Part shown: in pieces, positions 24,966 to 51,983 of the stretch
Numbering within the stretch: the first letter of the stretch is position 1
Layout: the number at the start of each line of letters is the position of its first letter
Origin: Treponema vincentii
Lineage (GTDB): Bacteria; Spirochaetota; Spirochaetia; Treponematales; Treponemataceae
Direction: 5' to 3'
Length of the DNA: 64,000 nucleotides
Assembly: GCF_018336815.1 (NCBI RefSeq)
Contig: NZ_CP050497.1
Coordinates: 1,922,001-1,986,000 of the forward strand
Position numbers and translations under genes: made by a program
Notes under the pieces: generated by a model
The model's input: the letters and a program-made list of their open reading frames with translations, nothing else
Databases searched by the model: none
What the model was told of the DNA's origin: nothing

Positions 24966-25087
24966 CTTTTGAAAATATACGGGTATCTGCGTTGTCGCTT
25001 AACAAAAAACAGTCCTCGACGTACAGCAAGTACGCCTGCGGGTGTTTTTTGTACGCTCCTAGCATCTACTCCGCCTATTTACAAAAG
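24966..25087 (+). repeat. 122-bp CTTTTGAAAATA element, copy b
   Basis: Ends CTTTTGAAAATA (24966-24977) and TATTTACAAAAG (25076-25087), one mismatch. Inner arms ACAAAAAACA/TGTTTTTTGT flank a GTAC-AGCAA-GTAC hairpin. It interrupts the Rpn-family gene. Confidence 0.8.
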
Positions 25088-25124
25088 GCTAACGGAAGGC
25101 TTTTTTAGAAAAGTCTGTTTCAGC

Positions 25125-25221
25125 AGCGGCAGGGATGCCGCTGGTTTCAAGCAGCAGCGATGTTTTGCCGAATGGCAAAACTCGTGTTTTCCGATAGACA
25201 CGGACGTCTATCGGAAAACAC
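25125..25221 (+). repeat. hairpin-trio unit inside the Rpn-family remnant
   Basis: Hairpin C 25125-25142 (AGCGGC/GCCGCT, loop AGGGAT); hairpin B 25162-25181 (GTTTTGCC/GGCAAAAC, loop GAAT); hairpin A 25184-25221 with a perfect 16-bp stem (GTGTTTTCCGATAGAC arm) and loop ACGGAC. Confidence 0.8.
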
Positions 25222-25596
25222 ATTTCAACATCGTAGGATGTACCGACACCGTCTTTTACCAGTACATCCAGCCGGACGGTTTTTGCACTCGATTTAGTGG
25301 TAACGCTATCTTGGGTTGACAGGTAGGTAATTTTATCGATCTTAGTAGCAAAGAGCATTTCGAGAAATTCTTTACAGATCGGTTCGGACTCCATCACTTT
25401 ACAGAACATAAAATCATCGGAGATAGTTAGGTCTTCAAAAGGTTTTCTCGTCATTCGCATCTCCTACAGTCCTTATGCGACTTTCGGAGTAAAATGGCTA
25501 AAGAAATGAAGAAAAAATTACAAGTTTTTATTAAATGCTTATTTTATCAGGGGAAAATAATGTGTAATTAAGATGAACACCTGTTGAATTACACAT

Positions 25597-25741: not shown

Positions 25742-26080
25742 GAGCGACTTAGGGCTCTGCCCTAAGAACCCGCCTTGGTTACAAAGCATAGTTCTGAATA
25801 AAAACTATTTTCTCCCGTTGCGACAAATTCTTTGGTAACGGCGATAATTTTATGCCCGCGTAAAAACGCATTCTTATAAATTCGGCAACGTAGAAATTTT
25901 CAAATTTCGAGGCTGCCGAATTGTTACGCTTTCGTAAAGCATTGCTTAACGAAAGCGTTTTTAAACAGGCGATGTTTGCCGCACGGCAAACTCGGCATTT
26001 AACCGGAGCTGCGCTATATTAGCAGCTTCGGTTAAATCAACATTTCCGCGACCGCTTGTTCGCAATTGGATATCGGTATC

Positions 26081-26326
26081 GTTAACAAATGTACCTCCGT
26101 GTACATTTGTTAACTGCGAGTTTGTTTTCACAAACTCGTTTCTGCTTAAAACTACGCCCATCCATGGGCGTTCTGAATAAGTAATATTGACCTGTTTGAT
26201 TTTGTGCACGGCAAAATTGGTTTTTCAGTAGCGGCACGGATGCCGCTGGTTCCATGCAGTAGCGATGTTTGAGGCGAAGCCTCAAACTCGTCGATGAAAA
26301 ATGTACACGGATGTACATTTTTCATC
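26081..26326. repeat. two opposed hairpin-trio units next to the orphan variable-repeat fragment
   Basis: Inverted unit: A 26081-26114 (14-bp stem GTTAACAAATGTAC, loop CTCCGT), B 26117-26138, C 26154-26171 (ACGCCC/GGGCGT). Direct unit: C 26230-26247 (loop ACGGAT), B 26267-26287 (GTTTGAGGC/GCCTCAAAC, loop GAA), A 26293-26326 (14-bp stem GATGAAAAATGTAC, loop ACGGAT). The direct unit lies about 30 bp from the variable-repeat fragment at 26356. Confidence 0.8.
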
Positions 26327-26809: not shown

Positions 26810-27029
26810 ACCGCCACGGACGGTGGTGGTTCCAAACAGTAGTAAGTTTTTCGATAGAAAAACTTATCGTTGAGCAGTGTACACGGACGTACACTGCTCA
26901 ACAGCCCGTTGCCGCTCAACCTCACAGGCAAAAGCGGCATGGATGCCGCTGGTTCCACGCAACAGCGACGTTTGAGGCTTCGCCTCAAACTCGTCGATGA
27001 AAAATGTACAAGGATGTACATTTTTCATC
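26810..27029 (+). repeat. two hairpin-trio units abutting the DGR variable repeat
   Basis: Unit 1: C 26810-26827 (loop ACGGAC), B 26843-26866 (TAAGTTTTTC arms), A 26869-26902 (14-bp stem GTTGAGCAGTGTAC, loop ACGGAC). Unit 2: C 26933-26950 (AGCGGC/GCCGCT, loop ATGGAT), B 26970-26990 (loop TTC), A 26996-27029 (GATGAAAAATGTAC stem, loop AAGGAT). The last arm overlaps the stop codon of the SUMF1 lipoprotein by two bases. Confidence 0.82.
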
Positions 27030-27171
27030 AGGGACGCGAGACCACACGCAAACCCAGATCGTAGTAGCGGTTGACGGGATAGAAGTTGCTGCCCCGAAAC
27101 GCACGAGCGGCGCCGCCTGCATAGCTGCTCCAGCAGCCGCCGCGTCTGACGCGGCGAGAACCGGAATCAGC
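27028..27171 (-). other. predicted DGR variable repeat (VR) at the 3' end of the lipoprotein gene
   Basis: 144 bases up to the stop codon align with the 141-base fragment at 26356-26496. Of about 28 substitutions in the core (codons 6-37), I count 19 at positions where the fragment has adenine. That bias is the hallmark of adenine-specific mutagenic homing. Direct proof needs the genomic template repeat and reverse transcriptase. Confidence 0.7.
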
Positions 27172-29124
27172 TGGGCCTGCATAATCCGGTGGCATCGGAT
27201 TGGGTAAGACGCTATACCGATCCCAGCACCACTCCCATACGTTACCGCTCATGTCGTATAGCCCGTACCCATTCGCCTGCTTCTTTTTCACTTCATGCGT
27301 CTTATTATTTGCATTTCCCCCATCACTATCGCTATACCACGCATAGTTTATCAGTTGCCCTTTCACATTCGTTCCTGCCCATTTATGCTCAGTTCCGCCC
27401 ATAGCTGCCCATTCCCATTCTGCCTCCGTCGGTAACCGGAACCCGTTTTTACTCCAGTCGCATACGGCATTATTCCAATCATTGTTATTAGATGTTGGTA
27501 TGGCACTAAAGGTCAGTGCATCGAAGTCTACGCCTTGAACTGTATAACAGGGCTCAAGCCCGCACGCCTTACTCAGCTTATTGCAAAATGCGATTGCATG
27601 ATACCAGTTCACGCTCTCCACCGGCCGTTTTTCCTGCACTTCACTGCCGTCAGGCGGATTTCCTGTTCCTTTAAACCTACTCGGATTCTCCCCCATCACC
27701 GCAGTCCACAACTCCTGCGTTACTTCCGTCTCCCCTATCCGGTAGGCAGTAAGGCTTACCGTGTGCACGTTGTTATCGCTTTGAGAGTTATCTCCTACGC
27801 TTCCGTTTGTTACCGCAGCAATATCGATCATTTTCATTTCGATAAACTTTGCATACAGCTCTTTGTTTCCGCTGCTTCCCTTTCTAATCTCCGTTACTTT
27901 TTCACCGCTGAAGTCTGCACTGGCATACCAGCCGAAAAAGATATGATCTGCTTTCTCCGCAGGTTTTAACGTGATTGTTTCTGTTTCTATCGTATACTTT
28001 GCAGGGTTGTCGGCATGGTTACTTCCCCCGTTGAGGTTGTAGGTGATGGCGTAGTTTTCAAGAAACTTGGCCCAAAGCGTTTTATTGCCCGTGCTTCCCT
28101 TTGTAATCTCCGTTACTTTTTCACCGCTGAAGTCTGCACTGGCATACCAGCCGAAAAAGATATGATCTGCTTTCTCCGCAGGTTTTAACGTGATTGTTTC
28201 TGTTTCTATCGTATACTTTGCAGGGTTGTCGGCATGGTTACTTCCCCCGTTGAGGTTGTAGGTGATGGCGTAGTTTTCAAGAAACTTGGCCCAAAGCGTT
28301 TTATTGCCCGTGCTTCCCTTTGTAATCTCCGTTACTATTCCACCGCTGAAGTCCGCTTTCTCATACCAACCCATAAAGGTATAGCCTGTTCTTTCTGCAT
28401 CCTTTAAGTCAATCGTTTCCGTTTCTACCGTGTAGTTTGCAGGATTACCGCTATCATTCGTTCCATCGTTTAGGTGATACGTAATGGTATATCGGGTGAG
28501 CACCTTTACCGTACAGCTCGCTGTTTTACCGCCGTCTGTAGTTGTTACGGTAATCGTTGCCTCTCCGGTTTTTTTCGCTGTTACTTTGCCGTCTTTGTCT
28601 ACCGCTGCAACATCAGGATTGTTAGAACTCCACGTTACTGTTTTGTTCGTAGCATTTGTAGGAGCAACCGTTGCGGTCAGTGTTGTACTAGTTCCTGCTA
28701 CAAGACTTACCGTAGGCTTATCCAACGTTACACCCGTTACAGCGACGGCAGAAGGCGGCAAAGCCTTAAAGCTTACCTTTACCGTTACGGCAGCCGTTAC
28801 TTTATGGCTATACGTTGTACTTACATTATTTGCCACAGCAGTACCGTTGACCGTCCACTTTTCTACTTCATAACCCTTTTCAGGCACCGCAGTAAACACA
28901 ACTGTTTTGTCTTTTTCGACGCTTATCGGGCTTTTATTCGTTTCCGTTACGCCGTCCGCCTTTGCTTTAAGCGTACCGTGTTCCCCGGCACTAAACGTTA
29001 CTGCAAATGTTTCCGGTTTAACCGTTATCTTATTCGGACAACCGGTAAACAAGGCCATTGCAGCAAGCATCAATCCTACTGCTAACCGGCTCAACAGCCG
29101 ATTTATTCTTCTATTTTTATTCAT
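27028..29124 (-). CDS. DGR-type variable surface lipoprotein (InlB, Big_2, Listeria-Bacteroides repeats, SUMF1/CLec domain)
   Basis: 698 residues from the ATG at 29124, chosen because AGGAGG lies seven bases upstream. Lipobox Cys29 (LFTGC). In order: InlB-type repeat (about 35-115); Big_2 Ig-like domain (VTGVTLDKPTVSLVAGTSTT); three Listeria-Bacteroides repeats of about 73 residues (ITYNLNGGSNHADNPAKYT), two identical in DNA; then a formylglycine-generating-enzyme-like C-type-lectin fold (IGETEVTQELWTAVMGENPS, FRLPTEAEWEWAAMGG, LYDMSGNVWEWCWDR). The final 47 residues have the layout of DGR variable regions (RVRRGGCW...RAFRG...LGLRVVSRP). It resembles T. denticola TvpA-family targets, displayed on the outer surface. 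No reverse transcriptase is in the window, so it would be diversified in trans. Confidence 0.9.
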   Translation of the reverse strand: MNKNRRINRLLSRLAVGLMLAAMALFTGCPNKITVKPETFAVTFSAGEHGTLKAKADGVTETNKSPISVEKDKTVVFTAVPEKGYEVEKWTVNGTAVANNVSTTYSHKVTAAVTVKVSFKALPPSAVAVTGVTLDKPTVSLVAGTSTTLTATVAPTNATNKTVTWSSNNPDVAAVDKDGKVTAKKTGEATITVTTTDGGKTASCTVKVLTRYTITYHLNDGTNDSGNPANYTVETETIDLKDAERTGYTFMGWYEKADFSGGIVTEITKGSTGNKTLWAKFLENYAITYNLNGGSNHADNPAKYTIETETITLKPAEKADHIFFGWYASADFSGEKVTEITKGSTGNKTLWAKFLENYAITYNLNGGSNHADNPAKYTIETETITLKPAEKADHIFFGWYASADFSGEKVTEIRKGSSGNKELYAKFIEMKMIDIAAVTNGSVGDNSQSDNNVHTVSLTAYRIGETEVTQELWTAVMGENPSRFKGTGNPPDGSEVQEKRPVESVNWYHAIAFCNKLSKACGLEPCYTVQGVDFDALTFSAIPTSNNNDWNNAVCDWSKNGFRLPTEAEWEWAAMGGTEHKWAGTNVKGQLINYAWYSDSDGGNANNKTHEVKKKQANGYGLYDMSGNVWEWCWDRYSVLPNPMPPDYAGPADSGSRRVRRGGCWSSYAGGAARAFRGSNFYPVNRYYDLGLRVVSRP

Positions 29125-29189
29125 ACTTGTTCCTCCTAGCACTTATATATTTTCAACCGCTAAACGGTTTATTCCTTAAATTTTTTAAC

Positions 29190-32666: not shown

Positions 32667-33029
32667 CGTTCAAAATTTTAAATAAAATTTTGAACGCTTT
32701 TTTCCACAGAAGGACAAACGCATCAGACAGGTTGATATAAATCGCAAAATAAAGAGGCCGTGAGACCATTTGAACCATCTTCAACTGCTGTACATCCGTG
32801 TACAGCAGTTGAAGGCGAGTTTTGTGTGCACACAAAACATCGCTACTGTATGGAACTACTGCCATCCATGGCAGTTCTGGTTGAACGGCCTCTTTATTTT
32901 GCGGGACAATATGAACACTGTACTTCCTTGTACAGTGTTCATAACAAGTTTTTCTAACGAAAAACTTGCTGCTGATTAGTATCACCGCCATCCGTGGCGG
33001 ACATGACAAAACGTCTAATGCGTTTGTCC
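32667..33029. repeat. composite GCATCAGA-arm palindromic element, copy 4, carrying two hairpin trios
   Basis: An AAAATTTT hairpin (32667-32696) adjoins outer arms GGACAAACGCATCAGACA (32712-32729) and CGTCTAATGCGTTTGTCC (33012-33029). Inner arms CGCAAAATAAAGAGGCCGT and ACGGCCTCTTTATTTTGCG frame a hairpin trio, and a second trio lies to the right. The outer arm overlaps the last codons and stop of thiP. Confidence 0.78.
32780..33000 (-). repeat. two hairpin-trio units nested in the element
   Basis: Unit 1: A 32780-32813 (14-bp stem TTCAACTGCTGTAC, loop ATCCGT), B 32819-32838 (GTTTTGTG/CACAAAAC), C 32858-32875 (ACTGCC/GGCAGT). Unit 2: A 32910-32943 (14-bp stem TATGAACACTGTAC, loop TTCCTT), B 32945-32968 (CAAGTTTTTC arms), C 32984-33000. 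On the minus strand the loops read ACGGAT, AAGGAA and ATGGAT. Confidence 0.8.
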
Positions 33030-50718: not shown

Positions 50719-50841
50719 CTTTTGCAAATATACGACGCATCTACTGCGTTGCTGCGCAAAAATAAATGCTCAACGTACAGCAAGTACGTCTCCGCTTTAT
50801 TTTTGCTCGCGCCTTGTATCCGGTACCACTATTTCCAAACG
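50719..50841 (+). repeat. 123-bp CTTTTGCAAATA element, copy e
   Basis: Ends CTTTTGCAAATA (50719-50730) and TATTTCCAAACG (50830-50841), diverged. Inner arms GCAAAAATAAA/TTTATTTTTGC and GTAC-AGCAA-GTAC centre. It starts directly after the LolA-like gene. Pieces of a further copy lie at 50951-50985 and 51090-51140. Confidence 0.75.
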
Positions 50842-50856: not shown

Positions 50857-51349
50857 ACCGCCACGGATGGCGGGGGAGTAAATCAGTAACGAGTTTAGAC
50901 GTAAGGCTAAACTCGTAGCCACAGAATGTACAGGACGTACATTCTGTGGCGTGCCTCCGCTTTATTTCGGCTAGGCTCCTAGCAATTTCAGAACGGACAA
51001 GGATGTCCGTGGTTATAAACAGTAGCGAGATTTGTGTTATGCACAAATCTCGTCGTTGAGAAGCGTACAAGGATGTACGATTCTCAACAGGCTATTTGCA
51101 AAAGCGCTGGAGAGGTACATCTACTTCGTTACTGCGCACAAATTAATCCTCAACGTATCAAAACTGCCAAGGAGGGCAGTGGTTCTACTCAGTAGTAAGT
51201 TTTTCGTTAGAAAAACTTATCGTTGACCAGTGTACACGGACGTACACTGGTCAACAGCGCCACGGACGGCGGTGGTTCCCAGCAATAGCGATATTTTGGC
51301 TTTGCCAAAATTCGCGTTCAAAAATTGACAAGGAGGTCAATTTTTGAAC
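50857..51349 (+). repeat. cluster of four hairpin-trio units
   Basis: Unit 1: C 50857-50873, B 50891-50914, A 50918-50950 (GCCACAGAATGTAC stem, loop AGGAC). Unit 2: C 50993-51010 (ACGGAC/GTCCGT), B about 51025-51050, A 51055-51088 (one mismatch). Unit 3: C 51163-51180 (ACTGCC, loop AAGGAG), B 51195-51219, A 51222-51255 (GTTGACCAGTGTAC stem). Unit 4: C 51257-51272, B 51293-51311 (ATTTTGGC), A 51316-51349 (GTTCAAAAATTGAC stem, loop AAGGAG). A degenerate C and B follow to about 51392. No gene is seen. Confidence 0.82.
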
Positions 51350-51392
51350 TTGCCAAGTACAGCGGTGGTATTAAACAGTCGCAAGTTTTTCG

Positions 51393-51983
51393 CTAGATAC
51401 CACTTGTTCTCAGAAAACTCAAATACTGTTGATCTTTCTCATAAACAAAACATTTCACTCTATCCAAATTTTTTATATGCATCGGTTTTTGAACGGGATA
51501 GCGTCGTGCAAGTATGCTCAACATTGTCCGCATCTGAAATCCGTGTCCTACAATCACCATATTTTTATTTTCTATAAATATAGACATCAATGCTTCGATT
51601 TCATGCTCGACTTTCTGCTTTGTTCTTTCCTGCCGCGGATTGTTACAAAACCACTGCACTCGTCCCCAGAATAGCCATCGCCATAGAGAAAGCGGCTTAT
51701 CAGAATCTCGATACGAATAAATCGGTATTTCCGAAAGCTCCGGCAATTGTATCGGTGTTTTATCAGGAAAGAGCTGTGCCGCCGTGTCAATGCTTCTTTT
51801 TAACGTACTCGTATAAAGTTCAAAATGCTCCGGTAATCCATCTCTGATAGACCGAAGCTGAGAATCTCGTATCTGTTCTATTGGTGCTTTATCATACTCA
51901 GCCTGCGCCTTAGCAAAGCCCTCAGCCGTATATTTCTTTTCCCAATTAAAAAGCACGTGTGCATGTCGTATCAAAATAAGCAT
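51393..51983 (-). CDS. histidine-phosphatase (phosphoglycerate-mutase-like) protein
   Basis: 196 residues from the ATG at 51983, an alternative being 52001. The catalytic motif is LIRHAHV (RHG type with Ala), followed by TSTLKRSIDTA, and the second catalytic His is in MVIVGHGFQMRTML. The family dephosphorylates sugar phosphates, nucleotides or proteins through a phospho-His intermediate. The substrate is unknown. The 3' end lies next to the hairpin cluster, and the last codons may derive from it. No operon partner. Confidence 0.83.
   Translation of the reverse strand: MLILIRHAHVLFNWEKKYTAEGFAKAQAEYDKAPIEQIRDSQLRSIRDGLPEHFELYTSTLKRSIDTAAQLFPDKTPIQLPELSEIPIYSYRDSDKPLSLWRWLFWGRVQWFCNNPRQERTKQKVEHEIEALMSIFIENKNMVIVGHGFQMRTMLSILARRYPVQKPMHIKNLDRVKCFVYEKDQQYLSFLRTSGI

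What the first reader, a model, noticed from the sequence alone, without database searches (positions are those of the whole stretch)
50857..51349. Family of hairpin trios with a conserved ANGGAY loop and locus-specific, fully paired stems
At least twelve units (1.4, 25.1, 25.7, 26.1, 26.3, 26.9, 27.0, 32.8, 32.9 and four at 50.9-51.3 kb) share one layout. Hairpin C (5-6 bp stem) is followed by a conserved linker (TGGTT...CAGTAGCGA), then hairpin B, then TCG and hairpin A (13-16 bp stem). Loops of A and C read AAGGAT, ACGGAC, ATGGAT, AAGGAG and so on, whereas the stems differ almost completely between units yet stay perfectly complementary, for example GATGAAAAATGTAC, GTTGACCAGTGTAC, TTCAACTGCTGTAC, ACTAAGGGGAGTAC. 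Such loop conservation with stem covariation implies that structure, not stem sequence, is maintained, either as RNA, as a cruciform or through templated repair of one arm by the other. I know no described family with this signature.
Basis: seen in the sequence. Interest (0 to 1): 0.9.

Follow-up and report, generated by a model that had tools for sequence, protein, structure and literature searches.

The report
Scattered CsrA-type RNA hairpin repeats
The hairpin trios are a catalogued but unexplained spirochaete repeat (Rfam TD-2), and their invariant loops match the recognition signal of the RNA-binding regulator CsrA, so the genome appears to carry well over a hundred scattered, mobile pairs of CsrA docking sites.

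Summary
All 13 units are matches to Rfam RF03162 (TD-2 RNA), with one TD-1 relative among them. The genome has 147 matches among 150 scored candidates, 136 over the cut-off. Stem A pairs are 96.8% Watson-Crick in parsed copies, against at most 60.8% in shuffles.

"No described family" is wrong: TD-2 is catalogued, though the library gave no paper on its function. The loops suggest one. The fixed letters are ACANGGANGU (hairpin A) and CANGGANG (hairpin C), with a shorter CAGGANG form. These are the published CsrA/RsmE signals, CsrB repeat included. The genome has one csrA beside fliW. Several other genera keep the loop on different stems.

The elements lie mostly between genes in random orientation, share no upstream sequence, and few sit at matching places in a close relative. 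So this is a mobile repeat carrying paired CsrA-type sites rather than a classical CsrB gene. RAYT and reverse transcriptase do not explain the spread. CsrA binding and transcription are inferred, not shown.

The parts
50857..50954 (+). TD-2 element 1 of the cited array; loops CACGGATG (C, at 50862) and CAGGACG (A, 5-nt loop, at 50931)
   Evidence: Rfam RF03162 68.2 bits; loop positions; fold z -8.35
50993..51092 (+). TD-2 element 2; loops CAAGGATG at 50998 and 51068; one mismatch inside stem A
   Evidence: RF03162 74.6 bits
51163..51255 (+). TD-2 element 3; loops CAAGGAGG at 51168 and CACGGACG at 51235
   Evidence: RF03162 65.9 bits
51256..51353 (+). TD-2 element 4; loops CACGGACG at 51261 and CAAGGAGG at 51329; its C site starts 26 nt after the A site of element 3
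   Evidence: RF03162 67.7 bits
1425..1521 (+). TD-2 element
   Evidence: RF03162 61.0 bits
25125..25223 (+). TD-2 element, overlapping the ORF 25089-25460(-) that matches PDDEXK_2 weakly, below its cut-off
   Evidence: RF03162 67.5 bits
25647..25745 (+). TD-2 element
   Evidence: RF03162 66.8 bits
25874..26003 (-). TD-1 element (sister family in the same Rfam clan); no GGA loop seen by eye
   Evidence: RF03155 72.4 bits; sequence
26077..26171 (-). TD-2 element
   Evidence: RF03162 80.5 bits
26230..26330 (+). TD-2 element
   Evidence: RF03162 83.3 bits; fold z -7.21
26810..26906 (+). TD-2 element
   Evidence: RF03162 81.0 bits
26933..27033 (+). TD-2 element; stem A reaches the 3' end of the ORF 27028-29142(-), which ends in an FGE-sulfatase domain
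   Evidence: RF03162 80.9 bits
32776..32875 (-). TD-2 element; the matching place in relative G006 has a short hairpin instead
   Evidence: RF03162 71.5 bits
32906..33001 (-). TD-2 element
   Evidence: RF03162 69.5 bits

Best explanation
Each trio is a copy of the TD-2 element: a ~98-nt interspersed, movable or recombining repeat whose sense strand, when transcribed by read-through from neighbouring genes, presents two hairpin-loop binding sites for the RNA-binding regulator CsrA. Hairpins A and C hold the CsrA signal (A)CANGGANG(U), or the CsrB-type CAGGANG, in a loop closed by a C-G pair. The stems only have to pair, so they drift by paired changes. Hairpin B and the linker join the two sites. 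The net effect would be dispersed CsrA docking sites: decoys, and local control sites on the transcripts that contain them. SHOWN: family membership, loop and closing-pair invariance, covariation, csrA and fliW present, mostly intergenic location, random orientation, no shared upstream sequence, few copies at matching places in one close relative. INFERRED: transcription, CsrA binding, the decoy or regulatory effect, and the way of spreading.
For: Fixed letters in 107 parsed G000 elements: hairpin A, A-2 107/107, C-1 106/107, A0 107/107, G6 106/107, T7 105/107; hairpin C, C-1 106/107, A0 107/107, G6 106/107; loop positions 1 and 5 are free; GGA was a parsing condition in this count. Without that condition 131 of 146 A loops and 120 of 146 C loops are CANGGANG or CAGGANG, and 141 of 146 elements have at least one. 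Published: SELEX consensus RUACARGGAUGU with ACA and GGA in all ligands, 51 of 55 with GGA in a hairpin loop, 44 with 6-nt loops closed by AC/GU pairing; RsmE reads an ANGGAN hexaloop; CsrB repeats are CAGGA(U/A/C)G (PMC7652899, passages). GTACANGGANGTAC occurs 118 times in G000 against 0 for the reversed pattern (in 3 of the other 39 genomes the reversed pattern has 1-2 hits). Among 28 loci from the relatives search, L046, L047, L048, L051, L055 and L057, from other genera and one other family, keep CANGGANG in both hairpins on unrelated stems. One csrA in G000; its protein matches solved CsrA-family chains, 2jpp (RsmE, name recalled) at E 2.2e-13. A T. denticola paper reports csrA beside fliW and CsrA sites near the flaB1/flaB2 ribosome sites (PMC9481697, passages). 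G-U exceeds A-C 52 to 24, one-sided p 0.0009 pooled, 0.033 in G000 alone.
Against: Orientation to neighbouring genes is random (upstream gene on the same strand in 66 of 133 in G000 and 74 of 138 in G006) and no upstream sequence is shared, so transcription is not assured. Stem A is usually 14 bp, whereas most SELEX ligands had 4 or fewer contiguous pairs and very stable structure was thought unfavourable. The C-to-A loop distance, start to start, is 63-72 nt, at or beyond the 10-63 nt reported for bridging by one CsrA dimer. Elements of the same scaffold can lack the motif: 5 of 146 G000 and 8 of 142 G006 elements have it in neither loop, some looking decayed, and 5 of 28 loci from the relatives search have no GGA loop (L049, L050, L054, L058, L059), L049 being over the Rfam cut-off (its place G009:C11:68194 is listed so). 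G-U is only 52 of 6003 pairs, low for a structured RNA (recalled); the G-U excess could be helped by the Rfam model that chose the elements, and single-stranded DNA would also tolerate G-T better. G014 has 6 TD-2 matches, 1 over the cut-off, but no csrA or fliW match; the weaker flagellin-domain hit that lies near csrA in G000, G009, G015 and G021 is missing there too, so a gap in the assembly is possible.
Confidence: 0.6

Rival explanations
1. TD-2 is purely a DNA element: its hairpins form in single-stranded DNA and are read by an unidentified nuclease or recombinase that moves it; the loop is that enzyme's signal and the resemblance to CsrA sites is accidental.
For: Random orientation and mostly intergenic placement; of 146 elements only 6 lie inside one collinear match with the G006 element stretches, 16 between two collinear flanks, 62 have one matching flank and 62 none; presence/absence differences at 641090 and 1954776; very pure Watson-Crick pairing; elements of the same scaffold without GGA.
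Against: No mobilising enzyme found: Y1/RAYT in 0 of 7 genomes of the genus; no RT match in TD-2-rich G001-G003. The fixed letters match CsrA specificity position by position, in both loop sizes.
Confidence: 0.2
2. Stem complementarity is kept mainly by templated copying of one arm onto the other (palindrome correction), not by selection on structure.
For: 71 double Watson-Crick changes in 87 independent closest pairs, with no excess of transitions (33 ts, 38 tv; unpaired core sites 214 ts, 189 tv), unlike a G-U-mediated path; adjacent paired changes without intermediates, e.g. G006 866434/866129.
Against: 84 one-sided changes in the same set; G-U exceeds A-C 52 to 24, which a strand-blind process would not give; loops and C-G closing pairs are fixed while stems vary, which needs selection on the loop.
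Confidence: 0.1
3. TD-2 is an RNA element for transcript ends or stability (terminator, 3' protection) unrelated to CsrA.
For: Strong hairpins, mostly between genes.
Against: Orientation is random to the upstream gene (66 of 133); no T-run is conserved after stem A; it would not explain loop letters kept across genera.
Confidence: 0.05

Closest known systems
TD-2 RNA, Rfam RF03162 (source publication recalled as Weinberg et al. 2017; not held in the library)
   Same: All 13 window units and 136 of 147 G000 matches exceed its cut-off; same three-hairpin layout.
   Different: Rfam types it as an sRNA gene; here it behaves as a high-copy interspersed repeat without a shared upstream sequence, and a CsrA reading is proposed.
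CsrB/CsrC, RsmX/Y/Z sRNAs
   Same: Several GGA hairpin loops with the CsrA consensus in one RNA.
   Different: CsrB is described as one RNA with about 18 sites; TD-2 has two per element, in more than 100 scattered copies, in a genome with fliW, without a shared upstream sequence.
TwoAYGGAY (RF01731) and Bacillaceae-1 (RF01690)
   Same: RNAs of unknown function predicted from the loop motif to bind CsrA outside Gammaproteobacteria, the second on its reverse complement (PMC4333381, passages).
   Different: Different families; none of the 14 over-cut-off Rfam hits in the window is to them.
REP/BIME elements with RAYT transposases (description recalled)
   Same: Intergenic palindromic repeats in many copies, also as head-to-head pairs (13 -+ against 3 +- neighbours within 300 nt, beside 33 in the same direction).
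   Different: No Y1 transposase match in 7 genomes of the genus.

Membership tests
TD-2 RNA (RF03162) | Covariance-model score at or above the gathering cut-off of 48.7 bits | tested here: met
   13 of 13 units in the window; 136 of 147 matches in G000
CsrA/RsmA-binding RNA | ANGGA (or AGGA) in hairpin loops closed by C-G, as CANGGANG or CAGGANG | tested here: met
   A loop 131 of 146, C loop 120 of 146, at least one in 141 of 146
CsrA/RsmA-binding RNA | A CsrA protein in the same organism | tested here: met
   One csrA in G000; PDB relatives
CsrA/RsmA-binding RNA | Physical binding by CsrA | not testable with these tools
   Needs EMSA or CLIP-seq
Csr/Rsm antagonist sRNA (CsrB type) | Stand-alone transcript from its own regulated promoter | tested here: inconclusive
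   No conserved sequence upstream of about -13 from loop C in 107 elements, so no shared promoter; copy-specific promoters and transcription were not tested
REP element with RAYT | Y1 (PF01797) transposase in the genome | tested here: not met
   0 of 7 genomes of the genus, 9 of 26 genomes overall
DGR target hairpin or other RT-driven element | Reverse transcriptase (PF00078) in genomes with many copies | tested here: not met
   No match in G001, G002, G003, which have 73, 75 and 64 TD-2 matches of 76 scored each; G000, G004 and G006 do have RT matches
Integron attC site | Integron integrase and attC core sites | not tested
   No integrase search was made; the GTT...AAC order in stem A looks reversed to attC (recalled)

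The most novel reading that the evidence does not exclude
A selfish or domesticated repeat has turned the genome of these treponemes into a distributed CsrA sponge: well over 100 mobile cassettes with about 250 CsrA-type hairpin sites (131 A and 120 C loops in 146 elements), working in a bacterium that also has the protein antagonist FliW, and placing any transcript they land in under CsrA.
Probability: 0.35. Interest if true: 0.8.

Novelty: new variant of a known kind. Interest (0 to 1): 0.6.

Why it matters
A 2014 paper says CsrA-sequestering sRNAs had been identified only in Gammaproteobacteria and predicts two more elsewhere (PMC4333381, passages). A 2020 review says it remains to be determined whether FliW and sRNAs act together on CsrA in any species (PMC7652899, passages). 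TD-2-rich treponemes have csrA, fliW and what look like hundreds of CsrA sites, so the question becomes directly testable. It would also be a case of a mobile repeat spreading binding sites for a global post-transcriptional regulator, and would suggest a function for an Rfam family of unknown role.

Tried and rejected
RAYT/REP mobilisation: rejected for this genus, no Y1 transposase match in 7 genomes (G021, also TD-2-rich, was not in that set). RT-driven spread, suggested by an FGE-sulfatase-domain gene beside TD-2 in the window: rejected as general driver, no RT match in three TD-2-rich genomes. sRNA gene with a shared promoter: not supported, flanks unconserved. Co-transcribed 3'UTR or leader element: not supported, orientation random. 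Templated arm repair: examined with similar and closest pairs, inconclusive. G014 as a natural csrA knock-out: inconclusive, an assembly gap is possible. Literature: nothing for 'TD-2 RNA' or for three of four terms; no paper with five of six CsrA/repeat/sponge terms; none with CsrA, hairpin and the literal string ACANGGANGU; four papers with T. denticola plus repeat terms, none on this by title and start of abstract. The hexaloop census left out loops whose end bases can pair (so all ANGGAT) and is not used for the claim. The 147th match (1530924) was missed when I copied the list, so 146 were analysed; 8 of 150 G006 matches lay in five stretches not fetched, so 142 were used; 39 of 146 and 41 of 142 elements did not parse with GGA in both loops and are left out and of the pair counts; 8 double changes involving a non-Watson-Crick pair are left out of the 71.

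Full report
What is there. Four stand in a row at 50857-51353, between a LolA-like gene and a histidine-phosphatase-like gene that converge on them. G000 has 147 matches among 150 scored of 699 candidates, 136 over the cut-off; relative G006 has 150 of 150 scored, 148 over it. Both lists are capped. Of 40 genomes in the relatives set, 22 match and 16 are over the cut-off. Of 247 genomes drawn from the phylum, 21 match, 15 over the cut-off, all within the same order (stricter filters).

Is the structure more than chance? Yes. In 94 unique G000 hairpin A sequences, 96.8% of 14 pairs are Watson-Crick; 1000 shuffles of the 3' partners reach at most 60.8%, and sliding the partner by 1-3 columns gives about 25%. 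Mean mutual information is 0.962 bits, against a shuffle maximum of 0.070 and 0.10-0.15 when slid. The 94 come from elements that had to reach a minimum pairing score, and the controls ignore relatedness, but the gap is very wide. Five window elements folded as RNA have z -5.2 to -8.4, with no shuffle folding as well.

What is fixed and what is free. In 107 G000 elements parsed with GGA in both loops (39 of 146 left out), hairpin A reads A-C-A-N-G-G-A-N-G-T: A-2 107/107, C-1 106/107, A0 107/107, G6 106/107, T7 105/107. Hairpin C has C-1 106/107, A0 107/107 and G6 106/107. The GGA itself was a parsing condition here. Loop positions 1 and 5 are free. Without requiring GGA, 128 of 146 A loops are CANGGANG and 3 CAGGANG; 109 of 146 C loops are CANGGANG and 11 CAGGANG; 141 of 146 elements have at least one such loop. 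In G006 134 of 142 do. GTACANGGANGTAC occurs 118 times in G000 and the reversed pattern never.

What it matches. A review (PMC7652899, passages read) gives the SELEX consensus of CsrA as RUACARGGAUGU, ACA and GGA present in all ligands, 51 of 55 with GGA in a hairpin loop, 44 with hexaloops in which the upstream AC pairs with the downstream GU. RsmE contacts an ANGGAN hexaloop through A and GGA. CsrB repeats are CAGGA(U/A/C)G. TD-2 therefore fixes the positions CsrA reads, frees those it does not, and uses both loop sizes known for CsrA. In 28 loci from the relatives search (top matches per genome, G000 not among them), L046 (G031), L047 (G012), L048 (G037), L051 (G019), L055 (G013) and L057 (G018) keep CANGGANG in both hairpins on unrelated stems; several others have the 5-nt form in one or both; five (L049, L050, L054, L058, L059) have no GGA loop.

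The partner exists. G000 has one csrA (G000:C1:937773-937928) and one fliW just upstream of it. The 73-aa protein matches solved CsrA-family chains, including 2jpp (RsmE by recall). csrA is found in 35 of 40 relatives, fliW in 24 of 26. A T. denticola paper reports the order fliW-csrA and CsrA sites near the flagellin ribosome sites (PMC9481697, passages).

RNA or DNA? Over hairpins A, B and C of 208 parsed elements in two genomes, 6003 pairs hold 52 G-U, 24 A-C and 46 other mismatches. G-U excess: p 0.0009 pooled, 0.033 in G000 alone. This favours selection on the sense strand as a single strand, with the caveats that a covariance model chose the elements and that DNA also tolerates G-T better. 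The low level of G-U and the lack of a transition excess among double changes (33 ts, 38 tv in 87 independent closest pairs, beside 84 one-sided changes) leave room for templated correction. A telling case: two paralogous genes carry a TD-2 in sense inside the reading frame (G000 2284108 and 139876). The copies differ by three paired changes (A7, A9, C5) and no one-sided change in the stems, although amino acids change.

A mobile repeat. By a simple ORF caller of mine, elements lie outside ORFs in 133 of 146 (G000) and 138 of 142 (G006) cases, and orientation is random: upstream gene on the same strand in 66 of 133 and 74 of 138, downstream in 58 of 133 and 67 of 138. Conservation starts about 13 nt before loop C and ends with stem A. 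Of 146 elements 6 lie within one collinear match with the G006 element stretches, 16 between two collinear flanks, 62 have one matching flank and 62 none (only G006 stretches with elements were compared, so absence elsewhere was not seen directly). Presence/absence differences are visible at 641090 and at 1954776, the latter being 32776-32875 of the window; in both the G006 site keeps a short hairpin. Neighbours within 300 nt are 13 -+, 3 +-, 23 ++ and 10 --; eight of the -+ pairs are 19-27 nt apart. No Y1 transposase matched in the 7 genomes of the genus, and no RT in three TD-2-rich genomes, so the mover is unknown.

How it likely works. When read-through transcription reaches an element in sense, the RNA offers two CsrA loops, 63-72 nt apart, or more in arrays: in the cited region eight loops, one neighbouring pair only 26 nt apart. 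CsrA dimers could be titrated or could act locally. Binding, transcription and effect are not shown. Against it stand the long stem A, the random orientation, and GGA-less relatives of the same scaffold.

Novelty. The sequence family is catalogued. The CsrA reading of TD-2 and its description as a mobile, multi-copy carrier of paired CsrA sites did not turn up in my searches, which cover only the open-licence library; one search lists 20 of 155 papers and one search lists 25 of 32, seen as listings. Similar motif-based predictions exist for TwoAYGGAY and Bacillaceae-1 (PMC4333381, passages). I rate it a new variant of a known kind.

Noticed in passing
window 25874-26003 (-): A TD-1 element (RF03155) sits among the TD-2 copies; by eye its loops lack GGA, so the sister family may share the scaffold but not the CsrA-type signal.
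   Followed up: partly
window 27028-29142 (-): Gene with Listeria-Bacteroides repeats, a Big_2 domain and a C-terminal FGE-sulfatase domain; a similar-looking sequence lies near 26.4 kb (by eye). It resembles diversity-generating retroelement targets (recalled); RT matches lie elsewhere in G000, the strongest at C1:312267.
   Followed up: no
G000:C1:2284108 (L139) and G000:C1:139876 (L078): TD-2 lies in sense inside the open reading frame of two paralogous proteins; stem pairs changed together between the paralogues.
   Followed up: partly
window 24990-25060, 50745-50820, 51110-51160 and many flanks: TD-2 often sits in slots of other repeats, e.g. CRACGTATCA before it in 22 of 146 and GCCTSCGS after it in 16 of 146; by eye, empty slots hold a short hairpin such as CGTAC-N5-GTACG.
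   Followed up: partly
window 51354-51410: A degenerate partial TD-2-like stretch seems to follow the fourth element (by eye); Rfam does not call it.
   Followed up: no
window 25089-25460 (-): ORF with a weak match to PDDEXK_2 (nuclease family transposase; 21.7 bits, cut-off 27.4) overlaps a TD-2 element; a possible lead for the unknown mover.
   Followed up: no
window ~1590-1680: Tandem repeat of CACAGCT units beside the first TD-2 copy (by eye).
   Followed up: no
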